In this document: one piece after another, positions 27,049-56,804 of the stretch
Layout: every line of letters starts with the position of its first letter
How positions within the stretch are numbered: position 1 is the first letter of the stretch
DNA from: Thermococcus sp. JdF3
GTDB lineage: Archaea > Methanobacteriota_B > Thermococci > Thermococcales > Thermococcaceae
Assembly: GCF_012027495.1 (NCBI RefSeq)
Contig: NZ_SNUK01000005.1
Coordinates: 62,001 to 126,000, forward strand
Length of the DNA: 64,000 nucleotides
Reading direction: 5' to 3'
Position numbers and translations under genes: made by a program
The notes under the pieces: generated by a model
Told to the model about the DNA's origin: nothing
The model's input: the letters and a program-made list of their open reading frames with translations, nothing else
Database searches by the model: none

Positions 27049-27095
27049 CTTCGGCTTTTTACCCCTATGAAAGGTAGCCGTAGCGGGTGAGTGAG

Positions 27096-29606
27096 ATGCC
27101 GAGGAAAAAGAAGGCTGAGGATGAAATAAAAGAGCTCGAAGAGTTTGAGGAGCTCGATGTCGTTGAGGAGTCCCCATCAAGCTCAACCAAGAAAAAGAAG
27201 GAGAAAGAGATAAAGACCCTTGAGGATCTGCCGGGTGTTGGCCCTGCCACCGCCGAAAAGCTCCGTGAGGCAGGTTATGACAGCATAGAGGCCATAGCCG
27301 TCGCCTCCCCAATGGAACTCAAGGAGATTGCCGGGATAAGCGAGGGTGCGGCGCTTAAGATAATCCAGGCCGCGAGGGAGGCCGCCAACATAGGTACGTT
27401 CATGCGTGCCGACGAGTACATGGAGAGGAGGAGTACCATCGGTAAGATTTCCACTGGAAGCAAGAGCCTTGACAAGCTCCTCGGGGGAGGCATAGAGACC
27501 CAGGCAATAACCGAGGTCTTCGGAGAGTTCGGCAGCGGGAAATGCTTTGCAAAGGACACGAGGGTTTACTACGAGAACGACACCCTCGTCCACTTCGAGA
27601 CCATCGAGCAGATGTACGAGAAGTACCGGGGGCTCGGCGGAGAGGTTCCGATGGATACCGGCTTTGCCGTTCCACTGGAAACGGTCAGCGTTTACACCTT
27701 CGACCCCGGGACCGGCGAGGTCAGGCGCACCAGGGCGGCCTACCTTTACAGGGAGAGGGTTAAAAAGCTCCTTCAGATCGCGCTCTCCCGCGGCAGGGTT
27801 CTGAAGATCACTGCCGTCCACCCGGTTCTCACCCTCAGGAACGGCCTTGAGTGGGTGAGGGCAGGGGAGCTCGCGCCCGGCGATGTTGTCGTTGGGGTCA
27901 GGGAGGTGCCGGCGAACTCCAATCCAGTTCCAGTGAACAGGGCCTATTTCCTCGGCCTCTTCGTTGCGGAGGGTACCGCAAATCCCCTTTCCATAACGAC
28001 GTCCTCGGAGAAGCTGAAGGATGTAATTGTGAGGTTCATTAAGGAGCACGACGGCTACGAGCCGACGGTTGAAGTCAGGAGGGGCCTCTACAGGATTCTG
28101 CTCCGGAAGAAAACCGCCGAGTGGCTTGGAAACCTGGCCGGCTCAACGGCCGGAACCAAAGCCATCCCCGATGAGGTGCTGAACGGCGACAGGGACGCCG
28201 TGGTCAGCTTCCTCGCTGGCTACCTGGACGGCGACGGACACGTCTCCAAGTCCCACGTTGAGTTCGTGACCAAGAGCAGGGAGCTGATGGAGGGGCTGAC
28301 CTTCCTCCTTAAGCGCCTTGGCATCTCGCCATCGGTTTCAACAAAAACGGTGAACGGTGAGACCTACTACCGTCTCTTCATAACCGGCGAGGACAGGGAA
28401 ACCTTTGCGGAGGTCATGTCGAGGTCCCTGCTCAAAGGCGGAAGCCTCCCGTCGGGTGGCGTTGGGAGGTATCCACCGGCGGTTGCCCGGTACCTTGCTT
28501 CCCTCTACGCCGAGTTCCGCCTGCCCAAGAGGGACGGCGAGACGGCCTACCATATCCTGACGAGGAAGCGCGACGTCTGGTTCACCGAGGGAACCCTGGA
28601 GGGGATCAGGGAGTACTTTGTGGGAGCCCTCGAAGCCCTTGAACGCGCCGAGGACGCCCTTTCCAGGGGCGAGAAGCCCGAGCTCCCCTTCCCGTGGACG
28701 AACCTCACGCGGTACGGCTTCACCGAAAGGCAGGCTTCAAACTACCGCACCCGCGGACTGCCGAAGAGCCCGGAGCTTAGGGAGCGCGTCGTGAGCGCTC
28801 TACTGGAGGAGATAGCCAGGCTCAGGAAGGTCGCACTCGGGGCCATAGAGTTCATAGAGACCGTCAAAAAGCTTGAGTTCCACGAGGTCGAGTCCGTCGA
28901 GCTGATCGATTACAATGACTGGGTCTACGACCTGGTTGTGCCGGAGACCCACAACTTCATAGCCCCCGATGGGCTGATTCTCCACAACACCCAGCTCGCC
29001 CACACTCTGGCTGTCATGGTTCAGCTCCCTGGGGAGGAGGGCGGTCTTAACGGCTCTGTCGTTTGGATAGACACCGAGAACACCTTCAGGCCGGAGAGAA
29101 TAAGGCAGATAGCCGAGGCCAGGGGCCTCGACCCTGACGAGACGCTCAAGAACATCTACGTTGCGAGGGCGTTCAACAGCAACCATCAGATGCTTCTCGT
29201 CGAGAGGGCCGAGGAGATAATCAAGGAGAAGGCCGAGACAGAGAGGCCGGTGAAGCTGCTGGTCGTTGATTCACTCATGGCTCACTTCAGGAGCGAGTAC
29301 GTCGGCAGGGGAACGCTTGCGGAAAGGCAGCAGAAGCTGGCCAAGCACCTCGCCGACCTGCACAGGATAGCCGACCTCTACGACATAGCGGTCTTCGTCA
29401 CCAACCAGGTGCAGGCGAAGCCGGATGCCTTCTTCGGCGACCCTACAAGGCCGGTTGGCGGCCACATACTGGCCCACAGCGCGACCCTGAGAATCTACCT
29501 GAGGAAGGGTAAGGCAGGTAAGAGGGTCGCCAGGCTCATAGACAGCCCGCACCTGCCCGAGGGAGAGGCGATCTTCAGGATAACCGACAAGGGCGCCGAG
29601 GACTGA
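27096..29606 (+). CDS. radA: RadA recombinase precursor with intein
   Basis: 836 residues encoded, 354 after removal of a 482-residue intein. Start ATG 27096 follows GGTGA by five bases. RadA is the RecA/Rad51-family strand-exchange protein for homologous recombination. It has an acidic/basic N-terminus, a helix-hairpin-helix domain ([20 protein letters not shown]), the polymerisation and ATPase core with Walker A GEFGSGK-T (split by the intein) and Walker [13 protein letters not shown], and loop 2 near [15 protein letters not shown]. The gene is rightward of the origin and nucS follows after 36 bases. One ORB-like core lies just before Walker A (ISTGSKS) and one inside the intein. Confidence 0.97.
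27448..27460 (-). repeat. ORB-like repeat M (in radA)
   Basis: TTTCCACTGGAAG, one mismatch to the core. It encodes ISTGS, a conserved RadA segment, with codons (TCC, ACT, GGA) unlike the AGC/ACC/GGC usual in neighbouring genes. Confidence 0.45.
27543..28988 (+). mobile_element. RadA intein with DOD homing endonuclease
   Basis: 482 residues inserted directly after the Walker A lysine (GEFGSGK / T). The first residue is Cys, the last are His-Asn, and the next extein residue is Thr, all as needed for protein splicing. Block B is ITAVHPVLT with the TxxH pattern. The two LAGLIDADG-type helices are [10 protein letters not shown] and [11 protein letters not shown]. The C-terminal splicing block contains [12 protein letters not shown]. 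Both endonuclease motifs keep an acidic residue, so homing may still be active. Inteins at this RadA site are known in other Thermococcales. Confidence 0.95.
27669..27681 (-). repeat. ORB-like repeat N (inside radA intein)
   Basis: GTTCCACTGGAAA, encoding PLET in the intein. Its presence in a mobile intron-like element suggests the motif arose or was selected after the intein arrived. Confidence 0.45.
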
Positions 29607-32757: not shown

Positions 32758-32890
32758 TATAGTCTGCTCTGTGGTCAGCCAAATACTCTTCAAGTAATCT
32801 TTTTTATGACCCCTTGAAAAAAAACAATGATGCAATGGTAAAGCGTAAGATTTAAATATGATTTTGTCTTCATTAATGCTGGTGATACTC

Positions 32891-33655
32891 GTGAGGCGGT
32901 TCCTTGCCGTGGTGGTCGTCTTCCTCGTGCTGGGCTTGACCATCAGCTCCGCTATGGCGGCGTCTGATGTTGCGCCAAAGTCAACTCCGAATGTTCCCAC
33001 CACTCTAAACTGTCCTTGTTGTTCAGGGAACGTGAGCCTGCCGAGGGATCTTCGGGTGCAGGAACTGAAGGGTCCGGTAGCTTACTTTAAGGCACTTGAA
33101 GTATTTAATTCGAAGGACTCAGTACGATTACTAACACAGCTGAACAACACTACGCTAATACCAAAGTATCACAATGCCCGAGTTTTTCTGATTTGGCACG
33201 ACAATGTTACGATTGAGGTCGTGGAAATCTCCCTTGCTGGGAGTAATGAGGGTGAACTGGTTCTGATTAAGGAACCCTCTGGGGAGAGTCTTGCAGTGGG
33301 TATAAATACTGGAAAGAGTGTCACTATCCTCTCTTTGGAGAATGGCACTGTCGTTAAGAGGACTGTTAGAGTACTAAAAACAGGAGACATTACTCCTGCA
33401 GGTTACAAGCTACGTATTCCTCATGATACGTTTATGAAGGCGTGTAAGTGGGTTGCGTCCCATCTATGTGAAGAAGGCCTGCCCGGATGCCTTGCTTCGT
33501 GTATTTTTGCACCGGGATTTGTTGGCAAGGGCGTCTGCGTGATTCTATGCTGGGCGATTAAGGATCTGCTCAAAATTGAGCAAAATATCTGTGAACGGGG
33601 GGTTGAGCAGTTGTGTCGTAAACTACTTGAACTCGGGATAATCGTAATAGAGTGA
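32891..33655 (+). CDS. Secreted precursor with Cys-rich C-terminal domain, halocin C8-like layout
   Basis: 254 residues from GTG 32891 (GGTGAT four bases upstream). The ATG at 32858 lies within the TATA element GATTTAAATATG and cannot start the protein. A signal peptide (1-23, cleaved after AMA) is followed by a CPCC motif (41-44), a beta-rich domain (about 50-175) and a hydrophobic domain (about 180-254) with eight cysteines (185, 193, 200, 204, 216, 220, 234, 242). Signal, N-terminal protective domain and Cys-rich C-terminal peptide is the order of the halocin C8 precursor, whose parts act as immunity protein and antimicrobial. Relationship is inferred from layout only. A membrane protein gene follows after 10 bases. 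Confidence 0.7.
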   Translation: MRRFLAVVVVFLVLGLTISSAMAASDVAPKSTPNVPTTLNCPCCSGNVSLPRDLRVQELKGPVAYFKALEVFNSKDSVRLLTQLNNTTLIPKYHNARVFLIWHDNVTIEVVEISLAGSNEGELVLIKEPSGESLAVGINTGKSVTILSLENGTVVKRTVRVLKTGDITPAGYKLRIPHDTFMKACKWVASHLCEEGLPGCLASCIFAPGFVGKGVCVILCWAIKDLLKIEQNICERGVEQLCRKLLELGIIVIE

Positions 33656-33665
33656 GGGGGACGAC

Positions 33666-34181
33666 ATGGATTTGGGAGAGCTCTTGGTTTATGCCGTTTT
33701 CTTTTTCATAATCCCTGTATTGGCAACGTGGAAAATTAAGAATACTCACAGACGTGACCAGTTAATACTCCTGTCCTCTCTTTTGGGACTGCTTTATGCA
33801 GCGGTTAGGGAGGACTCTTTCATTTATGTGATTGGAGTAGTTATTGTTGCGTTGTTCTTAATGTTCGTAATGTTTCTCCCGGAGGAACCTAAGCGCAGGC
33901 TTGACTGGATTGTTGTTATCATTTCAACCCTATTTCTGAACTTGTATCTTCTTCACGGCCGCCTCGTTCCAAGGGGTCCCCTTTACCTCCTCTCCGGTCT
34001 CACGGTTTTCTTAGTGTGGGTGCTGGGGGTTCTCAGAATGAGTCTTGTATGTCTTGTAACCTCTGTAATCCTCTCCGGTTTGATATTTTACGGGTTTCCT
34101 TTTATTTCATTTGTGTTAGGAGTGTTCATGTTGCTCCTGTGCCGAGAGGAGATAACGGGATACAGGGGGATTAAGAATTAG
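33666..34181 (+). CDS. Polytopic membrane protein coupled to the Cys-rich precursor
   Basis: 171 residues, almost wholly hydrophobic, with about six spans (first near 6-22, last near 140-160) and short basic loops. It begins 10 bases after the precursor, whose final codons and GAGGGGG act as its ribosome binding site. No known transporter motif is visible. By position it is a candidate immunity or export partner of the Cys-rich protein; the same order, precursor then small polytopic protein, recurs at 41-46 kb. Confidence 0.65.
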   Translation: MDLGELLVYAVFFFIIPVLATWKIKNTHRRDQLILLSSLLGLLYAAVREDSFIYVIGVVIVALFLMFVMFLPEEPKRRLDWIVVIISTLFLNLYLLHGRLVPRGPLYLLSGLTVFLVWVLGVLRMSLVCLVTSVILSGLIFYGFPFISFVLGVFMLLLCREEITGYRGIKN

Positions 34182-34223: not shown

Positions 34224-34736
34224 ATGAGAAAGGCATGGTTGTCTGTCATTCTGATGGTTTTGGCGAGTGGTTGCATATCTACCTACCACTCAACAGAAGA
34301 TGTTCTCTCCTACTGGCACTCTATTGACTCTTTCACGGCCCATGAGGTGGTTAAAATTGGCAATCAAACCTTTGAGAGTTATGTAACCTTTATAAAGCCT
34401 GACAAAATCGCCCGAGCTGATTATATAAACGGGTCACCGGTTCAGAAGGTTGTTATTGAAAACAACACTCAGAAAGTCATAACGGCGAACGGGACGTTTT
34501 TCTTAAACGCCACACTTGATGACGTCAACGCTCTCGACCCCTTCGTTGCAATACTGAACAATCTTGACTCCTTCAACGTCAAGCGGCAAGGAGACATCTT
34601 GCTTCTCAAGCCGAAGACTGAAGGGATGCCAACCTACGAGGTTGAACTCAACGGAAAACTGCCGGAGATAATCACAATAAAACAAGCCGGACTGACGATT
34701 GTGGTGGAGTACAAGACGATTGAGGTGGTAAAATAG
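34224..34736 (+). CDS. Lipoprotein with LolA-like fold (predicted)
   Basis: 170 residues from ATG 34224, preceded by GGGGGAATGGGG; the GTG at 34209 is too close to that site. The N-terminus MRKAWLSVILMVLASGC is a lipoprotein signal with lipobox ASGC. The mature part (DVLSYWHSIDSFTAHEVV, then YVTFIKPDKIARADY) has the opening of LolA/DUF4367-type beta-barrel proteins that hold hydrophobic ligands. It follows the precursor/membrane pair after about 40 bases, so it may be part of the same group. The fold call is by pattern. Confidence 0.6.
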   Translation: MRKAWLSVILMVLASGCISTYHSTEDVLSYWHSIDSFTAHEVVKIGNQTFESYVTFIKPDKIARADYINGSPVQKVVIENNTQKVITANGTFFLNATLDDVNALDPFVAILNNLDSFNVKRQGDILLLKPKTEGMPTYEVELNGKLPEIITIKQAGLTIVVEYKTIEVVK

Positions 34737-34898: not shown

Positions 34899-35360
34899 AT
34901 GGATAGGGAAGTATTTTTAATAACAATAGTGCTCTTAATGGTTTCAGCATTAAGTTTTGCCAGCGCCTACGAGTTCCAGGCCTACGGCTACGTTACCAAG
35001 GTGGTCGATGGCGACACCGTGTGGTTCCACTCCTACTACGGCTACAAAGCCGGGGAAACCTTCAAGGTCCGCTTCGCCGACATAAACGCGCCCGAGATAT
35101 ACACCGATGAAGGCAAGGAATCGAAGGCAGCTTTGGAGTGGCTCCTCGATACGTACGGCCGCTACGTCTACCTCGACGTCGATGACATCTATGGAACCGA
35201 CCGCTACGGCCGCGTGGTCGCGGTGGTTTACCTCCCCTTCTGGTACTACGGCTACGCCCTGAACGTCAATGAGTGGCTCGTCGAGAGCGGCTACGCGAGC
35301 ATCTGGGACCACTACAACGAGTTCGACCCATACTCCTGGAGCCTCTGGGTTCCCATCTGA
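34899..35360 (+). CDS. Secreted thermonuclease (SNase-like)
   Basis: 153 residues with a signal peptide (1-22, cleaved near SASA-YEF). The staphylococcal nuclease fold is clear: VTKVVDGDTVWF, the catalytic strand VRFADINAPEIYTDEGKES and TDRYGRVVAVVY. The catalytic Asp, Arg and Glu positions are occupied, so it is probably an active extracellular nuclease. GC content returns to the genomic level here, but a TATA element (GATTTTATACTGG, 34858-34870) in the AT-rich upstream DNA drives it. It may supply nucleotides or degrade extracellular DNA. Confidence 0.88.
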   Translation: MDREVFLITIVLLMVSALSFASAYEFQAYGYVTKVVDGDTVWFHSYYGYKAGETFKVRFADINAPEIYTDEGKESKAALEWLLDTYGRYVYLDVDDIYGTDRYGRVVAVVYLPFWYYGYALNVNEWLVESGYASIWDHYNEFDPYSWSLWVPI

Positions 35361-41038: not shown

Positions 41039-41235
41039 TTCAACGCCTTTGGGGTTTTGTGTGGATCTCTTTTACTCAACTTGTTTTCGTCAAATTGGAT
41101 TGTGTTTTGACTGTTAAAATCTTTTTTTTCTCTTGGTTTGTAATTTACTACTTTAATAGAAAAACTTTTAAGGACTTGGATTTTATACCTGTTGAAGACT
41201 TGGGAAGGTGAAGTGCTTGAAGTTGCGGCCTTTGT
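41039..41235 (+). repeat. Duplicated promoter/leader of the secretory cassettes, copy 1
   Basis: Nearly identical to 43157-43353 over about 195 bases, from TTCAACGCCTTTGGGG through the promoter AAAACTTTTAAGGACTTGG to the first codons of the precursor gene. The promoter element and the translation start are retained in a shorter third copy at 46419-46494. It is a duplicated expression unit, possibly a recombination substrate. Confidence 0.8.
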
Positions 41236-41657
41236 TCCCTGAAAGCGCTGATGTAAATCTGAAAGAGGCAACCGATTTGGAGGGAAAAAAGATACTCTCC
41301 AATGAGTACAAAAAGGTGGAGTATCTTGGCCCGTGGATTGGGGACAAGAAGAACACGTTCCACTTCAAGAAGAAAGGCTGGTTGACTTGGAAGGTCGGAG
41401 TCAGAATCCCTGCGAAATTCACAAAGCGGGGGTGGACGATAGTTGGTACTTTGGGAACTTCCATGTCATCGTTCGGAGACACTACAAAGCTTGCGGCGAG
41501 TTTTTATGGCATTAAAAAGCTCGTCGAGTCTCTCGGTACAAAGTTCACTCTAAGTGCCCTAAAGAACTTGGCGTTGAAGTCTAACTTTGCAGGTCTTGTA
41601 GTCTCGATAATTGAAACTGGGGTCAACGCGGACATAGCCTTTGTGTACGTGGGGTGA
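41217..41657 (+). CDS. Cassette 1 precursor-like protein lacking the signal core
   Basis: 146 residues from TTG 41217, five bases after GGTGA; the homologous start is used in cassettes 2 and 3. The first residues (MKLRPL) match their signal peptides, but the hydrophobic core and cleavage region are missing and the protein goes straight into FPESADVNLKEA. The C-terminal third is hydrophobic and ends GVNADIAFVYVG, comparable to GASLDALIYEEV in cassette 2 and GANIDALIFEEV in the 26-residue ORF. Either the signal was lost by an in-frame deletion, making this a decayed copy, or the product acts inside. No known family is recognised. Confidence 0.65.
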   Translation: MKLRPLFPESADVNLKEATDLEGKKILSNEYKKVEYLGPWIGDKKNTFHFKKKGWLTWKVGVRIPAKFTKRGWTIVGTLGTSMSSFGDTTKLAASFYGIKKLVESLGTKFTLSALKNLALKSNFAGLVVSIIETGVNADIAFVYVG

Positions 41658-41662
41658 GATTT

Positions 41663-42040
41663 ATGAAACTTTTGAGGTTTTTCTATATTTACTCTTTTAT
41701 TGCTATTGTCGGACTGATTGAAGCCACCTTGGGTAAATGGGATACCTGGGAGATCGGGGAAGGAATTATTTACGCTGTGGTGATTCCCCTCGTCGTTGTT
41801 TCAGTGATATTAATTCTGTCTCTTGTATATGAAAGGTTTAAGACCAGAATGGGCTTCCATGAAAGAAAAAACTCAGACAGAAGCATTACAAAGCTTGTGG
41901 GGCTTTTGGTCATTGGTATTATCCTCGCGTACTTCCCGGCTTTGATTGGTGGACGGATAAAACCAATCCTTGGATGGTTTTGCCTGTTCATGGTGTTACC
42001 GGTTCTCTACAGGCTTGATAAAATCGTGGAGAGTGATTAA
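41663..42040 (+). CDS. Cassette 1 small membrane protein
   Basis: 125 residues from ATG 41663 with GGTGAG upstream that overlaps the precursor stop. Four hydrophobic segments (about 5-22, 36-56, 75-92, 97-115) are separated by a basic loop. It is the first of two polytopic proteins that follow each precursor. No family is recognised; candidate immunity or transport partner. Confidence 0.65.
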   Translation: MKLLRFFYIYSFIAIVGLIEATLGKWDTWEIGEGIIYAVVIPLVVVSVILILSLVYERFKTRMGFHERKNSDRSITKLVGLLVIGIILAYFPALIGGRIKPILGWFCLFMVLPVLYRLDKIVESD

Positions 42041-42529
42041 ATGTCCCAACTAGGTAGAACCTTGCTGAGGATTTCCTTTTATTCTTGGATGTTTTGTCTG
42101 CCCCAAATATTGTCCTTTACAGTGTGGGGCTTTGGATCCGGGTGGGCTGGAGCACTGCTGTTATTTTTGATTTCAAGTGTTGGTTATACGATTAGGGGTA
42201 TGGCGTTTTTGATTGTCCCATTGGGTCTTTTGAAAATGATCCTGCGGTCAAATATAACTGTAACGGAAGATTCTGTAAAATATTTCAGACCTGCTGCGTT
42301 TTATGGGGTGATTGCATTCGCTTTAAGGCTTTTTAATGTGTTTATTCCGGAATTTCTTCCAGTCAGAGTTATTCTTGAACAAAGCCTTCTTGTAATTTCT
42401 CTCGTTGTGTCTTACTATTACATGGGAATCATCGTCTCAAGGTCTTCACCTGGAAGAGTTTATTTGATTCGAATTTCCAGTCTATTGGTGGGTTTCGTAA
42501 CATTTTTCCTTTTGCCTCCCCCCATTTAG
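42041..42529 (+). CDS. Cassette membrane protein, paralogue family with proline-rich end (1 of 3)
   Basis: 162 residues; the ATG directly abuts the previous stop. Four to five spans. It shares with the proteins at 44248 and 45506 similar length, a central loop, and a hydrophobic C-terminal helix ending in a proline-rich tail (FFLLPPPI here). The segment LPVRVILEQSLLVISLV matches VPFRIIVEQIALMFGLI in the 45506 protein. Repeated presence as the second membrane gene of each unit suggests a fixed role with the precursor. Function unknown. Confidence 0.65.
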   Translation: MSQLGRTLLRISFYSWMFCLPQILSFTVWGFGSGWAGALLLFLISSVGYTIRGMAFLIVPLGLLKMILRSNITVTEDSVKYFRPAAFYGVIAFALRLFNVFIPEFLPVRVILEQSLLVISLVVSYYYMGIIVSRSSPGRVYLIRISSLLVGFVTFFLLPPPI

Positions 42530-42547
42530 TGCTGTCTGGTGATGCAC

Positions 42548-42709
42548 ATGGCAGAACCTCGGTTAATGACTATATCCATACCATTTGAAGGGTCGTGGAA
42601 AAAGACAAAAACCAAAACCCTGACTTTGTATCCAAGCGGAAACCTTCCCCCGTGCTGGAACGGAATATGCCCTACAAGTGTAGGGGGGTCAGCAGGTGGA
42701 CTGGATTAA
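42548..42709 (+). CDS. Possible 53-residue protein
   Basis: Starts at ATG 42548, with a good GGTGAT site four to five bases upstream, and overlaps the next gene by 14 bases. The product is soluble, basic in the middle (KKTKTKT) and has two cysteines five residues apart near the end (CWNGIC). No family is recognised. The signal and position support it, but its length alone does not. Confidence 0.4.
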   Translation: MAEPRLMTISIPFEGSWKKTKTKTLTLYPSGNLPPCWNGICPTSVGGSAGGLD

Positions 42710-43106
42710 ATTCCTGCCTCACGAGGAAGGCATTGGAAGGATAGGAAAAGAGGCTGTTTCATGCTTTGTTCTCCTTTTTTGGCTGTATATGACAACAATG
42801 TGGGCGATCTCAAAGGGAATGGTCGTGGATCCGGGGGAATTTTTCAGTATAATGCTGTCACCCAAGACAATTTTAATTGGACTTCTTGCGGTGATTGTTG
42901 CGACCTTGATGAGGAAGGGCACTGGTGGTAGAACTTCCCCCTACCGCTACGGCTGGATTCTGACAGTGTTGGGCATGCTCCTGTTCCCCTTTGTCTCCCT
43001 GACGAGGAGCTATCTGGTAGTAACGCTGTTCTTTATACTGTGGTACTATCTGGTCATCTGGACTTTTTCTTGGGAAGCTGCTCCGAAAAAGACAGAATTC
43101 TTGTAA
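42696..43106 (+). CDS. Cassette 1 membrane protein
   Basis: 136 residues from GTG 42696, with AGGGGGGT upstream. Four hydrophobic segments (about 19-40, 50-66, 80-97, 102-122) and a charged C-terminus (EAAPKKTEF). It does not clearly align with the other membrane proteins of the region. It closes cassette 1, ahead of the second leader copy. Confidence 0.55.
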   Translation: MDWIKFLPHEEGIGRIGKEAVSCFVLLFWLYMTTMWAISKGMVVDPGEFFSIMLSPKTILIGLLAVIVATLMRKGTGGRTSPYRYGWILTVLGMLLFPFVSLTRSYLVVTLFFILWYYLVIWTFSWEAAPKKTEFL

Positions 43107-43156
43107 TCTTAATTTCTTCTGTCAAATCTGACTGCACTCTGTATTGATATGGTCCG

Positions 43157-43353
43157 TTCAACGCCTTTGGGGTTTTGTGTGGATCTCTTTTACTCAACTT
43201 GTTTTCGTCAAATGAGGTTGTGTTTTGGCTGTTAAAATCTTTTTTTCTCCTGGTTTGTAGTTTACTACTTTAATAGAAAAACTTTTAAGGACTTGGATTC
43301 TATATCGGATTGAAAACTTGAGGAAGTGAACCGCTTGAAGTGGCGGCCTTTGA
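43157..43353 (+). repeat. Duplicated promoter/leader of the secretory cassettes, copy 2
   Basis: Matches 41039-41235 with a handful of substitutions and small indels. It contains the promoter AAAACTTTTAAGGACTTGG (43278-43296), then the ribosome binding site and TTG start of the cassette 2 precursor. Confidence 0.8.
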
Positions 43354-43997
43354 TGGCAGTCCTCATTGGACTGCTGATGGTTGGAGTGACAGCCGGGAGT
43401 GCTTTGGCAATGCCAGTTCAGAAGGAGCCTATACGGCCAGATGATGCAATAGGTGTTGGTGCTTATATAAAAACAACTCTTTATGGATTTGATGCAATTG
43501 TGGAAGAGAAAACCATATCGCTTCCCCCAACATCAGTATTTACAAAGGTTCGGTATTACAAGGTACGCCACAATGAACTTGGTGGAATACATGTGAAAAT
43601 ATACCGTCTTGTACCCCTAACTAAATACGCAGTTGCTTTTTACACTCCATCTAACTTGAAAGTATGGACAACTGCGTTAAGTGGAGCACACTTAATTAAT
43701 GTTGAAAACAAGGGAAACTACAAGGTCATAACTGTTGAAACTAATAGCAGGTTTACAGCGAACATAAGAATGGGAATAACATTTAACTCAGGATACGGAA
43801 AGCATGGTATATTGGTCATAGGACATATGAGTACTTCTGTACTTCAGAGTTATATAATGAGCCTCGCAAGTGCTGGGGGTATTATTGGGGGCTTTGTAGC
43901 CACAGGAACCACAGCACTGCTTTCTCAAGCAGTAGGAATCATTTTGACCCTAGCATCTGGTGCTTCTCTTGATGCGTTAATATATGAGGAGGTCTAA
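43335..43997 (+). CDS. Cassette 2 secreted precursor with hydrophobic C-terminal domain
   Basis: 220 residues from TTG 43335; the GTG at 43326 is too close to the GAGGAAGTG site. A signal peptide (MKWRPLMAVLIGLLMVGV..., cleaved after ALA near 25) is followed by a beta-rich domain (about 30-160) and a Gly/Ala/Ser-rich hydrophobic tail (about 165-220) ending SGASLDALIYEEV. The last codons GAG-GAG-GTC also form the ribosome binding site of the next gene. The arrangement resembles precursors of hydrophobic bacteriocins, where the C-terminal peptide is active; that is an inference. No cysteines are present. Confidence 0.7.
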   Translation: MKWRPLMAVLIGLLMVGVTAGSALAMPVQKEPIRPDDAIGVGAYIKTTLYGFDAIVEEKTISLPPTSVFTKVRYYKVRHNELGGIHVKIYRLVPLTKYAVAFYTPSNLKVWTTALSGAHLINVENKGNYKVITVETNSRFTANIRMGITFNSGYGKHGILVIGHMSTSVLQSYIMSLASAGGIIGGFVATGTTALLSQAVGIILTLASGASLDALIYEEV

Positions 43998-44000
43998 ACA

Positions 44001-44240
44001 ATGGTGAAAGTAACCCTTGCGGGAGTTACCCTCGCTGTTTTTTCCTTTTTGTTTAATTTTCTATTGGGAATAACTTTTGGGAGATTCGTAGCATTTGATC
44101 TTGTCATCCCCCTGTTCATATACTGGCTCTCTTTAAAATGGGAGAACAAAAAACCGGTTTTAAATGACATTATAGCTGACATTTCACTCATAATACTTTT
44201 AGGAAGCATAGGCTGGTATTTCAGTACGAACCTGGGGTGA
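44001..44240 (+). CDS. Cassette 2 small membrane protein
   Basis: 79 residues, with GAGGAGGT supplied by the end of the precursor gene. Three hydrophobic segments (about 5-24, 29-45, 58-75). It is the first membrane gene after the precursor, in the same place as the 41663 gene in cassette 1. No family is recognised. Confidence 0.6.
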   Translation: MVKVTLAGVTLAVFSFLFNFLLGITFGRFVAFDLVIPLFIYWLSLKWENKKPVLNDIIADISLIILLGSIGWYFSTNLG

Positions 44241-44247
44241 GGAGGAT

Positions 44248-44724
44248 ATGAGTAAGAGTAAATTTGTTCTTGACTTAATCTTTATTGGAGCGGGATTGTC
44301 TTTAAAGAACCTTCTGGTTATAGTCACATTAACTGCAATTAACTCTCAGGATGTTGGAAGTAGCATCGTGCTTATAGGTGCTGCTATTATTGGGGCATTT
44401 TTGAGATTTGCTATTTTGTATTCAATTTCAATGTTCTTGGTTTTAATTTCTCTGTATATATTAAACAGAACGAAACTTGATTCTTTGACAAAGTACGTTA
44501 TCGCATTTTATCCTCTTGCAATTTCGGGGATTATTAATGCAGTAGTGTACTTTGTAAAAAACATCTTTGTTTTAAGAGAGGTCGTGATGTTTGGAGGGTG
44601 GCTGTTTTCCTATCTCCTACTCGCCAAGTTGTTGCTGCACAATATAAAGAGACCTGTGCCGGTGTTTTTCAGTGCTATCTGCACCGCGATAGCTGTGTTC
44701 TACTTGTTACCACCAGTTCCATAA
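44248..44724 (+). CDS. Cassette membrane protein, paralogue family with proline-rich end (2 of 3)
   Basis: 158 residues, GAGGAGG upstream. About five spans with the overall pattern of the 42041 and 45506 proteins and the end VFYLLPPVP, equivalent to FFLLPPPI. It differs in the central loops, as expected for fast-evolving immunity-like proteins. Function unknown. Confidence 0.65.
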   Translation: MSKSKFVLDLIFIGAGLSLKNLLVIVTLTAINSQDVGSSIVLIGAAIIGAFLRFAILYSISMFLVLISLYILNRTKLDSLTKYVIAFYPLAISGIINAVVYFVKNIFVLREVVMFGGWLFSYLLLAKLLLHNIKRPVPVFFSAICTAIAVFYLLPPVP

Positions 44725-44759
44725 TGGGTGGAACTTATTGGGGGTAAGGAGGTTTAAAA

Positions 44760-45068
44760 ATGATTGCACTTTTTCTTTCTTTTTTATGCGGTGTTCTAGT
44801 CTCAACAACGTTGCTAACGGCATTAGTGGGAGTATTCCTCGTAAAACTTTTAGATTTGAAATACAATGTGTTCTCTACATTTCGTGGAAATATATCTTTC
44901 TTGGTAGGGGAATTATTTGGTGCGGGATTATGGTTTTTCATTTGGCGTAATTCCTACTTTGAACAATGGCATAGTATGTGGTGGGTTCCGGTATCATTGT
45001 TTGTTGCATTCTTGGTTAATGCGGTGAGAACATCTATGGATTACAAAAAATCTTCGGAGGGAACTTGA
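44760..45068 (+). CDS. Cassette 2 membrane protein
   Basis: 102 residues, AGGAGG upstream of the ATG. Three hydrophobic segments and a short charged tail (MDYKKSSEGT). Its stop overlaps the ATG of the 26-residue ORF (TGATG), so the two are translated together. It may belong to a unit whose precursor has been reduced. Confidence 0.6.
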   Translation: MIALFLSFLCGVLVSTTLLTALVGVFLVKLLDLKYNVFSTFRGNISFLVGELFGAGLWFFIWRNSYFEQWHSMWWVPVSLFVAFLVNAVRTSMDYKKSSEGT

Positions 45069-45148
45069 TGAAGAATGCACTTAGCTCCGCAATTGCACTT
45101 CTTCTTTCAGGAGCGAACATAGATGCACTCATATTTGAGGAGGTGTGA
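45068..45148 (+). CDS. 26-residue hydrophobic peptide, free version of the precursor tail
   Basis: MKNALSSAIALLL then SGANIDALIFEEV. It aligns with the last 26 residues of the cassette 2 precursor (SGASLDALIYEEV) but has no signal peptide or N-terminal domain. The ATG overlaps the upstream stop (TGATG), and GAGGAGGTG at its end is the ribosome binding site for the next gene, as in cassette 2. It is either a leaderless peptide or the remnant of a precursor; retained start, frame and signal favour expression. Confidence 0.55.
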   Translation: MKNALSSAIALLLSGANIDALIFEEV

Positions 45149-45150
45149 AA

Positions 45151-45522
45151 GTGAAGACGAATAAGAACCGTCTCTTTTTATATTTTTTAAAGGGGCTATT
45201 GGCCGCTATAACCCCGTGGACTGCCCTGCTGATTGGAATAGTGGTATATGTCAATAAAAGCAAATACTCATATTATTCAGCTTTGAGCACAAGCGTGGCC
45301 TTTTTGCTTGGAGGAGTATTTGGAGCACTTTTCGGATATTTTCTACTGGGTGATACATTTTTGGCTTGGTGGACTTCTTCAGGGGGATTAACCACCATAT
45401 TGATTGGCATAAGATTGTGGATTCCGGCATTGTTATTTGGGGCGTCTGTGATTGGGATACTGAAGTGGGGTTTTCAAAAATACAAAGAAACCCGGAGGGG
45501 TACCAATGAAGACAGCCAATAA
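45151..45522 (+). CDS. Cassette 2b membrane protein
   Basis: 123 residues from GTG 45151, with GGAGGTG provided by the 26-residue ORF; the GTG at 45145 is inside that signal. Three hydrophobic segments in residues 8-95, then a charged cytoplasmic tail (KYKETRRGTNEDSQ). It overlaps the next gene by 17 bases. It takes the same place as the genes at 41663 and 44001. Confidence 0.6.
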   Translation: MKTNKNRLFLYFLKGLLAAITPWTALLIGIVVYVNKSKYSYYSALSTSVAFLLGGVFGALFGYFLLGDTFLAWWTSSGGLTTILIGIRLWIPALLFGASVIGILKWGFQKYKETRRGTNEDSQ

Positions 45523-45973
45523 ATTGCTCCTTTGGTTTGTATCATTGTTCTTGTGTGGTATTGTTGTGTACTCTTATCAGATTGTGGGGTTTTACTGGAT
45601 GATTGTTGTTCTGAATGGTGAGCTTTCACGAATATGGGTGGCTGTGCTGGTGGCAGGGTTGAGGTTTGTGATTCAGTCTGCACTCCTTTTGGGGATACTT
45701 AGACTAATTTTGAAGGCTCTGCCAAGCTTGGAAGTCTACTTGAAATCAACCACACCACTCGTAGTGGCTGGCATGACCGGATCAATACTAAGGCTTTTCT
45801 ACAATGACTGGGTTCCTTTTAGGATAATTGTGGAGCAGATAGCTCTGATGTTTGGGTTAATCTTGGCTATGCTACTGCTGGGTAGAGGATTGAGCGCCGG
45901 GAAGAAGTCCTATTTATCTTGCGCTTTAGCTGGGCTTTTGGTGTTTTTGATCCTCGTCCCTATACCACTTTGA
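45506..45973 (+). CDS. Cassette membrane protein, paralogue family with proline-rich end (3 of 3)
   Basis: 155 residues with GGAGGGG upstream. Four to five spans. VPFRIIVEQIALMFGLI matches LPVRVILEQSLLVISLV of the 42041 protein, and the protein ends LILVPIPL. It completes the third repeat of the order: hydrophobic tail peptide, small membrane protein, 155-162-residue membrane protein. Function unknown. Confidence 0.65.
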   Translation: MKTANKLLLWFVSLFLCGIVVYSYQIVGFYWMIVVLNGELSRIWVAVLVAGLRFVIQSALLLGILRLILKALPSLEVYLKSTTPLVVAGMTGSILRLFYNDWVPFRIIVEQIALMFGLILAMLLLGRGLSAGKKSYLSCALAGLLVFLILVPIPL

Positions 45974-45996
45974 TATCATAAATGGGTGGTGTCAAA

Positions 45997-46416
45997 ATGA
46001 AACTCCCCTGAACTGAAGTTCCCCCACTTTATTTTACGCTGGTGGATTGCCGAGCTGGCCCTGGCACTCCTTGGTGGGTACTTTGGACTTGAGGCCCTTC
46101 TTGTCACGGGTTTTTACTGGCTGGGCTTCCCGGCACTGATGTGGCCCATGTGCTCCGCCTATAGGGATTCGAAGTACTGCTCGCTGGAAAGCAGGCTGTG
46201 GTTCGTGTTCTCCGGGGTGGTTTCGGCGTCTAATGTTTTCGTGTGGGTTTTCGGGTTTTATCCGTACTCCACGCGATAATTTCGCTCTTCTGGACGCTAC
46301 TGCTCTTCATGGTTGGACTGGCGTTGGGGGCTGAAAAACGCTTGGCCTTGCGGATCGTGAATAGAGTCATTTTGCGGTGGTTGAGCCTTTTCATATTTGT
46401 TATAAATTACTATTGA
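45997..46416 (+). pseudogene. Frameshifted membrane protein gene of the cassette region
   Basis: A good GGTGGTG site and ATG 45997 lead to a stop after four codons. The +1 frame then reads for about 90 codons as membrane protein (RWWIAELALALLGGYFGLEA onward) to a TAA near 46280. A third frame continues hydrophobic coding (ISLFWTLLLFMVGLALGAEK) to the TGA at 46414-46416. Two frameshifts in one otherwise coherent membrane protein gene indicate decay. A sequencing error could explain one of them. Confidence 0.6.
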
Positions 46417-46418
46417 AT

Positions 46419-46494
46419 GAGAAAACTTTTAAGGACTTGGATTTTATATCCGCTGGAAACTCTTGGAGGTGAACCGCTTGAAGTGGCGCCCGCT
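46419..46494 (+). repeat. Cassette promoter/leader, partial copy 3
   Basis: GAAAACTTTTAAGGACTTGG, TTTTATATCC, then GGAGGTGAACCGC and TTGAAGTGGCG, as in copies 1 and 2. The longer upstream homology is absent. Confidence 0.7.
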
Positions 46495-47527
46495 GGTGGC
46501 GGCCATCTTAGGACTACTTATGCTTGGAGTGACAGCGGCTGGAACAAATATATCCGCGGAGGAGACAAAGGAATCCAACAAAGATACGCTGGACATCAAA
46601 CTCCTGCCAAGCCTGCCGGGCAAAATGATGTACTTCTACGGGGAGGATGCAGTGAAAGCCCTGGTGGAGATAAACCGCAAAAACATGCCGCTTAGAATAA
46701 TTCCTGACCGAGGGTTATCCCGGGTAACGTTCGTGGGAGTGTATCGGGACACCCAAGACAGAGTTTACTACTACATCGTGGAGGGGCCGGCAAAAAAGGA
46801 GGCCGTTTTAGGGGACTTCATTAAAAAAGCAAAGAACTTCTCGCAGAGGCCGGCACGCAGGAAGATATCGATAATGGGACGAACCCGAGGTTGGACCGAC
46901 ATTGGGGCAGTCACATGGAAAAAGGCCTCCGTTGGAAACACAATGGAGATGGGGGTAACGGCAGAATTCAGCTATGTACCCACAACATCGGGGATGAAAT
47001 ACTACCTTGTGGAGATTCATCAGTCGGGCAATCCCAAGAGGAGCGACATAGCCGTTGATGAGATGACCGTTGGCATAAGTGTCCCGGACAGAATACCCAT
47101 ATCAGAAATATGGATAAACGATTGGCTACCCGGTATGGATGGGGGTCCCAAAAAATACTATTCATACACTTCAACAATAAATGCGGGTGGAAACTTACTC
47201 AGTTATTCCGCGTCCGCATCGGTTAGTGAGGAAACCAACGACGGTATCACTTTCAGATGGAAGGTTCGAAGTCATGAGCTGGGGAGGGATGTTAAGTTCA
47301 TTCATTATGACTTTGTAAAGAAGATTGGAAGTGGAAGGCTCTCAAAACCCGCCTACGGAGCAATCCTCAAGGCAAACCCCAGCGTTATCGTTGTCTCCAA
47401 GCCGAACACAGCCCGGTTATCCTTTGAGGCTCAAGCGAAGTTCAACGTTGCCAACTGGATGATTGTCCCAACGGATACGCTGAAATTCGAGGTTGAGGTT
47501 AGTCCCCTCTACGTGAAGGAATCTTAA
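46478..47527 (+). CDS. Cassette 3 secreted protein, large beta-rich cargo
   Basis: 349 residues from TTG 46478, six bases after GGAGGTG. The signal peptide MKWRPLVAAILGLLMLGVTA is homologous to that of cassette 2, but the mature part is unrelated: a long beta-rich domain with many Thr/Ser strands (TSTINAGGNLLSYSASASVS), and no hydrophobic tail. It lacks cysteines and known catalytic motifs. Same promoter and export signal with different cargo is the pattern of modular secreted effectors. No small membrane gene follows directly with a clear link; the next gene is at 47633. Confidence 0.7.
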   Translation: MKWRPLVAAILGLLMLGVTAAGTNISAEETKESNKDTLDIKLLPSLPGKMMYFYGEDAVKALVEINRKNMPLRIIPDRGLSRVTFVGVYRDTQDRVYYYIVEGPAKKEAVLGDFIKKAKNFSQRPARRKISIMGRTRGWTDIGAVTWKKASVGNTMEMGVTAEFSYVPTTSGMKYYLVEIHQSGNPKRSDIAVDEMTVGISVPDRIPISEIWINDWLPGMDGGPKKYYSYTSTINAGGNLLSYSASASVSEETNDGITFRWKVRSHELGRDVKFIHYDFVKKIGSGRLSKPAYGAILKANPSVIVVSKPNTARLSFEAQAKFNVANWMIVPTDTLKFEVEVSPLYVKES

Positions 47528-54278: not shown

Positions 54279-54410
54279 TTGGGTCACCTCCGGGTGTTGT
54301 CGTTATACTATTGGGCTTAGTTACTGATATATGTTTTTGAGCTAATAATCTGATATTTGAGTCACAATATATTTAACTCCTCCAGAACAGACCTCAAAGT
54401 GGTGGGCACG

Positions 54411-56804
54411 ATGGGTGAAAATGAGAACATCAGCTCGAAAAAAGAAAATGCCTGGAGAACCCTCAAGCTCAAAAACGATGTTTTTGAAGCATTTGAGGAG
54501 ATAAAAGATGCTTTAAAAGCCAAGCACGGTAAAAAATCCATAAGCAACTCCGATACAATGCAATTTCTTCTCTACCTCGCTAAGGTCGCACTTGAACTGG
54601 AAGGAAACCCCAAGCTTGAAGGTGTCGCAGAACCCCTTGACTACGATGTCCTGACGAACCTTGAAAGATACTCTCAATCTATCGCCGATTCTTTGGGGAT
54701 TCCTGTTAAACACGTCAGAGGTGGCGTTTTGTGGGGCATTTTGGAAGTGGCGAACGAAGCGATCCAGGAAGACTGGAAAAAAGGTGAATATTACCTGAAG
54801 CTGGCTCAGAGCTGGGTGGGAGAGTATTCTTTTCACCCTTACGAGGAGGTTTCAAAAACTATTGAATCTTTAATCAAGAATATTCCGTGGACTGGACAGC
54901 GCAATCCTCACAGAGAGAAAATACACGAGAGGCTCTTTGAAAACGTTGAGAATCTTGTTGCGTTGATACTTCTGCGTCCCAACGCTCGAATCCTGGGAGC
55001 TTTAGTGCTCAATGAGATCCATGTTGGAAAATGGGAGAGGGCACTAAACTTTATCAAGGGGGTACTCCTCTCTGAAGGCCTGAATAAGGAAGAGCTTATT
55101 GGCCTGATTGAAGAGTTCATTAAAAACGCCGGTAAAGAGCTTGATCCCGAGACGCTGGAAGATTACGTTAGGCAACTCATCAAGGCTGCCGGCTCACTTT
55201 CCATAGAGCTGGAAATAATAGAGATTGCCTCCGATTTCACCGATGTCACACCCTTTTACAGCGAGATTCTGGAGAGGGGCTATCTCTTCCCAGAGCATCG
55301 GCTTGAAGTTTCCAGATCAATGATTCGGACGGCATCGAGAAAAAGTGATAGGACCCTTCTTGACCGTGCAATTGAGGTCGCTAAAAAAGAACTTGGAAAG
55401 TTAAGAACAATTCCGGGTTCCAATTTTGAGTACTATCGCTGGAGTATAGCGGAAACGCTGGTCAAAGCTGGATTTTGGGATAGCGTAATCAAACTTAAGT
55501 TCGATGATGAAATACCGTCTATTCGTTATTACACTTTTATGGCCCTCTCCCTCCTGGAGAAAAATTTTGATGATGGCTGGAGGGAGTTTGAGAAGATTGC
55601 GAAGATGATGTGTATAGAAGAGTGTAGGTACTTAGAAACGAATCCTGGAGTTTTTGAGTTGTTCCTTCCCCAGGAAGCAGAGGATGATATAAAAGAGTGC
55701 CTTAATAAACTCGAGAGTTCAAGCGTTGATTTCGGAAAGTTTTGGTTGAGTGTTTGGGGAAATGGGCTCTTTGAAATAAACGGAAAAATAGAAAGAATAG
55801 ACGTCCACTGTCTGTGTCATGATCGGCAAAATAAAGTTATTTCCCTGTTTTTGGACGAGCGCAGTGAACTCCCTCAAGAGGTCGTTGTGAAGTTTATATC
55901 ACGGCTTTTAAACCTCGGGGCTAAAGTTAGTATCCTTGATCATAAACTTATGCTTGCAGTGCTCCTAAGTGAATACGATGAATTCAGGGATATGGCAAGG
56001 GGCTTAGTTAAAGAAGCCATTGAAGAAGCCCGTAAGGAATATGGTATCAGCTCCATTGTGCGTTATCTGCGTTCTCCCGGATTTGTCAAACTTTTGGTTA
56101 GCGTTGGAATTGATCCAATGGAGATACTTAAAAGCACTGTGAAAGGGCTCATCCAGGTCAGACGTTCAAAGGGTGGGAGGCTTTATCCATCTGATATTCA
56201 TTACCTCGTGAGGGGGTTCATTGCTGCTCTGGTCTTCAACGCTGAAGACAAAGACGAAATCAACGAGATCCTTGGTCTAATTGAAAATGGTAAACTTCTT
56301 GAGGTATTTGCGAACATAATAGAGGATCCGTCTCTCAGGCGCGCACTTGGAGCGTCAGAATTGCCTTCTAAGCAAGATTTAACTAACTACTTCCTTGAGG
56401 CCTATATGGAGAAGAATGGGTACACATCAACGGCTATTTTCATTCTGGAAAAGGAACTCAAAACGTATTTACTTCCTTATCTGGTAGATGGGCTGTTGAG
56501 CGAAGGAAATGTTGAACTGGTTGACAGATTAGTTTCGAAGTTCGGTTTGGGCTGGTTTGAAATGATACGGGGCAGACCTGAAGATGGACTAAAAATTCTT
56601 TTGAAATATCGGTTTGAGAAGTGCATCTCGGAGTTCAAGAAGAGGGGCAAAAAAGGGGAAGAACTACCCGGGTGCTACAGGACAGTTCTTTCACTCCTAC
56701 GTGCATCGAGGAGATACCTTAAGCCTGAGGATTATGGCTCTCTGGGTGGAAAATACACCGGCAGGCTCTTGGCGTGGAAAGTCCTCAAAACTGGAAAGGG
56801 CTGA
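54411..56804 (+). CDS. Large unknown protein, RHH-like N-terminus plus helical repeats
   Basis: 797 residues from ATG 54411, after GGTGGG. A TATA element (ATATATTTAAC, 54366-54376) lies about 40 bases upstream, which excludes the earlier in-frame start at 54357. The N-terminus (WRTLKLKNDVFEAFEEIKDA, then SNSDTMQFLLYLAK) looks like a ribbon-helix-helix DNA-binding domain. The rest is almost all helical, with repeats about 35-40 residues long, reminiscent of TPR/HEAT arrays. No ATPase or nuclease motif is visible. AT-richer than its neighbours, suggesting transfer. It might be a regulator or part of a defence or mobile-element system; none is demonstrated. Confidence 0.65.
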   Translation: MGENENISSKKENAWRTLKLKNDVFEAFEEIKDALKAKHGKKSISNSDTMQFLLYLAKVALELEGNPKLEGVAEPLDYDVLTNLERYSQSIADSLGIPVKHVRGGVLWGILEVANEAIQEDWKKGEYYLKLAQSWVGEYSFHPYEEVSKTIESLIKNIPWTGQRNPHREKIHERLFENVENLVALILLRPNARILGALVLNEIHVGKWERALNFIKGVLLSEGLNKEELIGLIEEFIKNAGKELDPETLEDYVRQLIKAAGSLSIELEIIEIASDFTDVTPFYSEILERGYLFPEHRLEVSRSMIRTASRKSDRTLLDRAIEVAKKELGKLRTIPGSNFEYYRWSIAETLVKAGFWDSVIKLKFDDEIPSIRYYTFMALSLLEKNFDDGWREFEKIAKMMCIEECRYLETNPGVFELFLPQEAEDDIKECLNKLESSSVDFGKFWLSVWGNGLFEINGKIERIDVHCLCHDRQNKVISLFLDERSELPQEVVVKFISRLLNLGAKVSILDHKLMLAVLLSEYDEFRDMARGLVKEAIEEARKEYGISSIVRYLRSPGFVKLLVSVGIDPMEILKSTVKGLIQVRRSKGGRLYPSDIHYLVRGFIAALVFNAEDKDEINEILGLIENGKLLEVFANIIEDPSLRRALGASELPSKQDLTNYFLEAYMEKNGYTSTAIFILEKELKTYLLPYLVDGLLSEGNVELVDRLVSKFGLGWFEMIRGRPEDGLKILLKYRFEKCISEFKKRGKKGEELPGCYRTVLSLLRASRRYLKPEDYGSLGGKYTGRLLAWKVLKTGKG

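What the first reader, a model, noticed from the sequence alone, without database searches (positions are those of the whole stretch)
32891..34181. Candidate archaeocin: halocin C8-like precursor in Thermococcus
Signal peptide, beta-rich middle domain and hydrophobic C-terminal domain with eight cysteines match the order of the halocin C8 precursor, where the C-terminal peptide kills and the middle part protects. A polytopic membrane protein follows at once. AT-rich composition suggests transfer. Antimicrobial function is inferred from layout, not shown.
Basis: inference. Interest (0 to 1): 0.72.

Follow-up and report, generated by a model that had tools for sequence, protein, structure and literature searches.

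The report
Halocin-like archaeal toxin precursor gene cassette
A heat-loving Thermococcus carries a three-gene set that very probably makes a secreted killing peptide, a matching membrane protein that protects the producer, and a surface lipoprotein, and different Thermococcus strains appear to swap the killing parts, as rival bacteria do with their toxins.

Summary
Gene 32891-33655 (GTG start, 254 aa) encodes a signal peptide, a CPCCSGN leader, a strand/helix-pair/six-strand beta domain and a helical hydrophobic tail with eight cysteines. A polytopic membrane protein follows after 10 bp, then a lipoprotein. The window protein itself matches no profile. However, 12 of 94 Thermococcales genomes carry its family, and siblings with the same leader bear tails over the cut-off of the halocin C8 domain model TIGR04449. 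The window tail is a divergent variant (8 of 10 cysteines; profile score above all 600 shuffles).

Three results point to an exchangeable toxin-immunity cassette. (1) The next-door membrane protein tracks the tail type: 12 of 16 similar tail pairs have homologous neighbours, against 0 of 155 dissimilar ones. (2) Membrane genes persist without a toxin at the same chromosomal slot in five genomes. (3) Synonymous divergence falls from about 1.0 in the leader to 0.1-0.3 after codon 50, so toxin, immunity and lipoprotein genes moved together. The lipoprotein is modelled with a LolA fold.

Best reading: a halocin C8-like archaeocin precursor with separate membrane immunity. Killing, cleavage and protection are inferred, not shown. 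New variant of a known kind.

The parts
32851..32858 (+). TATA-box-like TTTAAATA of the cassette promoter
   Evidence: read directly; it overlaps the alternative ATG start at 32858, which argues for GTG 32891
32881..32886 (+). Shine-Dalgarno-like GGTGAT
   Evidence: read directly, 4 nt before GTG 32891
32891..33655 (+). halocin C8-like precursor (P0001, 254 aa)
32891..32959 (+). signal peptide (residues 1-23, ..SSAMA|AS), Sec-like: siblings have K-R and no twin-arginine motif
   Evidence: cleavage site inferred by eye
33011..33031 (+). conserved leader motif CPCCSGN (residues 41-47), close to the recombination step near codon 50
33050..33370 (+). pro-domain: strand, helix pair (residues 62-82), six-strand beta meander (90-160); the beta part co-varies with the tail type
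33404..33652 (+). C-terminal tail (residues 172-254), helical, 8 Cys: proposed antimicrobial peptide, type A
33666..34181 (+). polytopic membrane protein (P0002, 171 aa), proposed tail-specific immunity protein
34224..34736 (+). lipoprotein (170 aa, lipobox ..LASGC) with a predicted LolA fold, common to the cassettes of all tail types

Best explanation
The locus is a mobile three-gene antagonism cassette of Thermococcales. The first gene makes a secreted halocin C8-like precursor: signal peptide, short conserved leader, beta-rich pro-domain, and an exchangeable hydrophobic cysteine-rich tail. The tail would be cut off outside the cell and act on the membranes of related strains. The second gene makes a polytopic membrane protein specific to that tail type, which protects the producer. 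The third makes a surface-anchored lipoprotein with a LolA-like hydrophobic cavity, which probably handles or sequesters the hydrophobic peptide of any type at the membrane. Shown by sequence: the three-gene order, conserved leader versus variable tail, the tail-membrane protein pairing, immunity-only loci, exchange behind codon 50, and homology of sibling tails to the halocin C8 domain. Inferred: cleavage, killing, protection, and the role of the lipoprotein.
For: Family in 12 of 94 Thermococcales genomes. Sibling tails hit TIGR04449: L009 41.7 bits, E 1.8e-10, over the cut-off of 24; L004 and L008 about 20 bits, G070 24.1 bits with its neighbours in frame. Window tail against those tails: hhalign score 24.4, reached by 0/300 full shuffles and 0/300 shuffles with Cys columns fixed. 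Tail type predicts the next gene: 12/16 tail pairs with at least 40% identity have homologous neighbours, 0/155 below; 0 of 20,000 permutations reach this. A type-B tail in an unrelated second precursor family is followed by a type-B membrane relative, E 3e-6 and 7e-6. Membrane genes without an intact precursor at the same slot in G061, G060, G015, G024 and a decayed G029; G015 keeps the last 20 toxin residues upstream of the intact membrane gene. Membrane and lipoprotein genes are fused in G059. Slot empty in 15 of 40 genomes surveyed. dS: leader 0.72-1.07, rest of precursor 0.14-0.30, membrane and lipoprotein 0.14-0.26, flanking MTAP 0.58-0.66. Lipoprotein model pLDDT 90.4, best PDB match LolA, E 4e-8, probability 1.00.
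Against: The window protein itself matches no Pfam, NCBIfam or PDB entry and has no detectable match to a haloarchaeal halocin C8-like protein. Its tail similarity is weak (hhalign probability 35%). Its tail has 8 Cys, not 10. No protease gene is in the cassette. The precursor model is of low confidence and matches no solved fold. Pair counts are not independent, because sequences within a tail type are related. Nothing here measures killing or protection.
Confidence: 0.82

Rival explanations
1. Self-contained immunity as in halocin C8: the beta-rich pro-domain, released by cleavage, binds and neutralises the tail, and the membrane protein has another role.
For: In family 1 the beta domain co-varies with the tail (87-91% identity within type A, 20-31% between types). 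A review states that ProC8 is processed into the immunity peptide HalI and the 76-aa halocin (PMC11509114). A helix pair precedes the beta part; a paper title cited in that review names a helix-loop-helix in HalI as essential for immunity.
Against: In family 2 the whole N-terminal part is 69-76% identical across different tails, so it cannot be tail-specific there. Membrane genes, not pro-domains, are what survives in loci that have lost the toxin. Tail type predicts the membrane gene in both families.
Confidence: 0.2
2. The membrane protein is a tail-specific exporter or processing factor, not immunity.
For: It lies immediately downstream, is polytopic and matches the tail type.
Against: The precursor has its own signal peptide; the proteins are small, unrelated between types and the window's copy has no ATPase or protease signature; copies are kept where no precursor exists, which makes no sense for an exporter.
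Confidence: 0.07
3. A non-lethal surface system (kin recognition, signalling peptide or adhesion) with variable cysteine-rich tails.
For: Variable tails with matched receptors would also give pairing and module exchange; no killing has been measured.
Against: Sibling tails fall in the halocin C8 domain family, whose founding member kills (citing Sun et al. 2005). Loci with rows of several different membrane genes and no or one toxin (G029, G054, G052) look like stacked immunity.
Confidence: 0.1

Closest known systems
Halocin C8 (ProC8/HalC8) and NCBIfam TIGR04449 halocin C8-like domain
   Same: Order signal peptide, middle domain, C-terminal cysteine-rich peptide; siblings of the window protein carry tails over the TIGR04449 cut-off. 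A Haloferax larsenii halocin C8-like gene is likewise followed, after 19 bp, by a 68-aa membrane-like protein.
   Different: Window tail scores on no model, has 8 Cys (the first of CxxC and the last are missing) and ends in a Cys-free LELGIIVIE. Sec-like signal instead of the Tat signal reported for ProC8. Tail-matched membrane gene and LolA-fold lipoprotein in the cassette.
Second Thermococcales halocin C8-like precursor family (this work; L079-L084, L086; 315-332 aa)
   Same: Conserved N-part with exchangeable TIGR04449-type tails and tail-matched small membrane genes; a type-B tail and its membrane partner are shared with family 1.
   Different: Unrelated N-part, constant across tails; different chromosomal site; no LolA-fold lipoprotein found in the cassette.
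Bacterial polymorphic toxins and bacteriocins with cognate immunity genes
   Same: Conserved leader, variable tail, adjacent matched immunity gene, orphan immunity genes; in family 2 an orphan toxin tail (L081, G070).
   Different: Tail is a small cysteine-rich membrane-type peptide, not an enzyme; no dedicated secretion machinery seen.
LolA/LolB/RseB-fold lipid- and lipoprotein-binding proteins; by analogy NisI-type immunity lipoproteins (from own knowledge)
   Same: Predicted LolA fold with hydrophobic cavity and lipoprotein anchor.
   Different: No sequence match to Pfam families; archaeal; role not tested.

Membership tests
Halocin C8 domain (TIGR04449) | profile score over the curated cut-off (24 bits) | tested here: not met
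   Window protein: no hit at E<=10. Siblings with the same leader: L009 41.7 bits, G070 24.1 with its neighbours in frame
Halocin C8 domain (TIGR04449) | homologous C-terminal peptide | tested here: inconclusive
   hhalign probability 35%, score 24.4, 0/600 shuffles reach it; no match to a haloarchaeal sequence
Halocin C8 domain (TIGR04449) | ten-cysteine pattern with CxxC at the start and C-terminal Cys | tested here: not met
   8 Cys; most align with the sibling pattern, the first and last are absent
Halocin C8 precursor | order signal peptide, middle domain, C-terminal peptide | tested here: met
Halocin C8 precursor | Tat signal | tested here: not met
   MRRFLAV in the window, K-R in siblings, no Tat consensus (by inspection)
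Halocin C8 precursor | release of an active C-terminal peptide | not testable with these tools
   needs mass spectrometry and killing assay
Halocin C8 precursor | immunity encoded by the same gene | not testable with these tools
   co-variation of pro-domain and tail is compatible; family 2 argues against it there
Polymorphic toxin / bacteriocin locus | conserved leader with exchangeable tail | tested here: met
   leader 86% vs tail 24% (G000-G070); leader 70% vs tail 98% (G000-G044); dS step near codon 50
Polymorphic toxin / bacteriocin locus | adjacent gene matched to the tail type | tested here: met
   12/16 vs 0/155 pairs, 0/20,000 permutations
Polymorphic toxin / bacteriocin locus | immunity genes without toxin | tested here: met
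   G061, G060, G015, G024, G029
LolA-fold lipoproteins (third gene) | LolA fold and lipobox | tested here: met
   AF2 pLDDT 90.4; Foldseek LolA E 4e-8, TM 0.67..LASGC. No Pfam sequence match

The most novel reading that the evidence does not exclude
Thermococcales have a recombining bacteriocin system with three parts: exchangeable halocin-type tails, including tail kinds outside all current models; tail-specific membrane immunity; and a common LolA-fold surface lipoprotein that loads, ferries or sequesters the peptide at an archaeal membrane. A LolA-like protein working in antagonism in archaea would be new.
Probability: 0.35. Interest if true: 0.75.

Novelty: new variant of a known kind. Interest (0 to 1): 0.62.

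Why it matters
Characterised archaeocins come almost only from haloarchaea and Sulfolobales. Here are sequence-level signs of toxin-immunity warfare among hyperthermophilic Thermococcales: paired immunity genes, immunity-only loci and module exchange at a defined leader. It gives testable gene pairs in a genus with laboratory genetics, a tail type that current models miss, and an unexpected LolA-fold partner.

Tried and rejected
Direct profile membership of the window protein: no meaningful hits in Pfam, NCBIfam or PHROGs, none in PDB sequences. Fold match of the precursor: none significant; weak PCNA- and FABP-like matches ignored. Direct similarity to a haloarchaeal precursor: tail not detectable, middle 43 columns at hhalign probability 3.6%, not claimed. 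Common origin of the two Thermococcales N-parts: not detectable. Virus or plasmid carriage: no hits. Type-A tail outside Thermococcales: only weak hits at E>=0.018 within the sampled phylum; those inspected did not look like precursors, and the G015 hit is the toxin remnant. ATG 32858 as start: rejected because it overlaps the TATA box. The survey of archaeal toxins by Makarova et al. 2019, which I recall as enlarging the halocin C8 family, is not held in the library, so I cannot say whether any of these Thermococcales loci were listed there.

Full report
What is there. The window lies in a 2.14-Mb genome in 48 contigs. Its nearest named relatives are Thermococcus MAGs. Gene 32891-33655 has a promoter-like TTTAAATA, a GGTGAT ribosome site and a GTG start, and encodes 254 residues. 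A 171-residue polytopic protein follows after 10 bp and a lipoprotein 42 bp later. All three are AT-rich at third positions (GC3 0.48-0.56) between MTAP (0.83), SNase (0.77) and an amidohydrolase (0.72).

Anatomy. AlphaFold2 on the 11-member family alignment gives a signal helix, a disordered leader containing CPCCSGN, one strand, a helix pair (62-82), six beta strands (90-160) and a helical tail (178-247). Mean pLDDT is 63.6 and no solved structure matches. The tail has eight Cys in the order C-x7-C-x6-C-x3-C-x11-C-x3-C-x13-C-x7-C.

The family. The protein matches no profile by itself, but relatives exist in 12 of 94 Thermococcales genomes, its own included. Their first 50 residues, with CPCCSGN in nearly all, are conserved; the tails are of several kinds. 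L009 has a tail at 41.7 bits to TIGR04449 (cut-off 24); L004 and L008 are near the cut-off, G070 (L004) reaching 24.1 bits with its neighbours in frame. The window tail (type A, with a 35-40% identical type A' in three genomes) compares with those tails at hhalign score 24.4. None of 300 column shuffles, nor of 300 shuffles that keep the Cys columns in place, reaches this score (max 22.5). So the homology chain is strong through the precursor N-part and moderate through the tail. The first CxxC cysteine and the last cysteine of the ten-Cys pattern are both missing in type A, which would fit the loss of one disulfide (inference).

A second family. Six further Thermococcales genes over the TIGR04449 cut-off, in six genomes, form a different precursor family of about 315-332 aa. 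Its N-part is 69-76% identical across members and its tails differ. In G070 a 164-aa orphan piece with a truncated N-part and yet another tail lies just behind the complete gene and its membrane gene, as in toxin tail cassettes of polymorphic toxins.

Pairing. For 19 precursors of both families I compared 90-residue tails and the immediately following small gene. Among tail pairs at least 40% identical, 12 of 16 have homologous next genes; among the other 155 pairs none has; no permutation of 20,000 reached 12 (maximum 7). Relatedness inflates these counts, but six tail types with two or more members each keep their own neighbour, and one (type B) does so across the two unrelated families. The lipoprotein is the control: it is 45-92% identical across all family-1 types, while the membrane proteins of different types are not recognisably homologous.

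Slot and orphans. All family-1 cassettes but one that lie on long enough contigs sit between MTAP and the amidohydrolase. That interval is empty (about 110 bp or less) in 15 of 40 other loci surveyed. Five genomes carry membrane genes there without an intact precursor: G061 (membrane gene plus intact lipoprotein), G060, G015 (the last 20 residues of an A' toxin remain upstream), G024 (lipoprotein truncated) and G029 (three membrane genes of three types and a broken lipoprotein). G054 and G052 have extra membrane genes behind the lipoprotein. G059 carries its cassette elsewhere and has membrane and lipoprotein parts fused in one 272-aa protein. This is what immunity genes under selection by neighbours' toxins would look like.

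Exchange. Within type A, dS is 0.72-1.07 in codons 1-50, 0.14-0.30 in codons 51-254, 0.16-0.26 in the membrane gene and 0.14 in the lipoprotein, against 0.58-0.66 in MTAP. Conversely G000 and G070 have similar leaders (dS 0.48) but different toxins, and G051 and G018 have leaders as close as their MTAP genes (0.27 and 0.31) with different toxins. So resident leaders acquire new pro-domain, tail, membrane and lipoprotein genes as a block, with a step near the CPCCSGN motif. Low dN/dS in the tail (0.04-0.17) indicates purifying selection on the peptide.

The third gene. The lipoprotein is modelled at pLDDT 90.4. Its best solved matches are LolA (E 4e-8, probability 1.00, TM 0.67), LolB and RseB. 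These folds hold acyl chains or hydrophobic segments (own knowledge). As it is common to all tail types and surface-anchored, I think it binds the hydrophobic tail generally (carrier or first-line sequestration), while the membrane protein gives specificity. This step is inference.

Protection: which part. In family 1 the beta pro-domain co-varies with the tail, so a halocin C8-like masking role is possible. In family 2 it does not. Across both families it is the membrane protein that tracks the tail, and it is the membrane gene that persists alone at the family-1 slot. I therefore assign specific immunity to the membrane protein and masking to the pro-domain.

Comparison with the known. A review gives halocin C8 as a 283-aa precursor exported by Tat and cut into HalI and a 76-aa peptide (PMC11509114). 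The window system shares the layout but not the Tat signal, the ten cysteines or a profile score, so it is filed as a divergent halocin C8-like variant. A Haloferax larsenii halocin C8-like gene also has a 68-aa membrane-like protein 19 bp downstream, so a membrane partner may be general. The 2019 archaeal toxin survey could not be read here, so prior listing of these loci cannot be excluded.

Limits.

Noticed in passing
window 41208-47527: AT-rich block with two secreted proteins sharing a leader (43326-43997, with a Gly-rich hydrophobic C-terminus, and 46463-47527; 57% identical over the first 34 residues) and a row of small polytopic membrane genes, some weakly related (42041-42529, 44248-44724, 45506-45973). 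It could be a second leader-conserved toxin/immunity array.
   Followed up: partly
window 34899-35360: Secreted staphylococcal-nuclease-like protein (Pfam SNase, 37.3 bits), also present in the same slot in genomes without the cassette.
   Followed up: no
window 27087-29606: RadA-like gene of 839 aa apparently carrying an intein; the orthologue is 357 aa in G044 (L032) and 836 aa in G018 (L038).
   Followed up: no
L081 6743-7237 on the reverse complement (G070:C1): Orphan toxin-tail gene of the second halocin C8-like family, with truncated N-part and a tail unlike the others, directly behind a complete precursor and its membrane gene.
   Followed up: partly
window 54357-56804: AT-rich 815-aa ORF; no annotation was sought.
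   Followed up: no
L139 3293-4451: Haloferax larsenii plasmid halocin C8-like gene followed by a 68-aa membrane-like protein, possibly an unrecognised immunity gene.
   Followed up: partly
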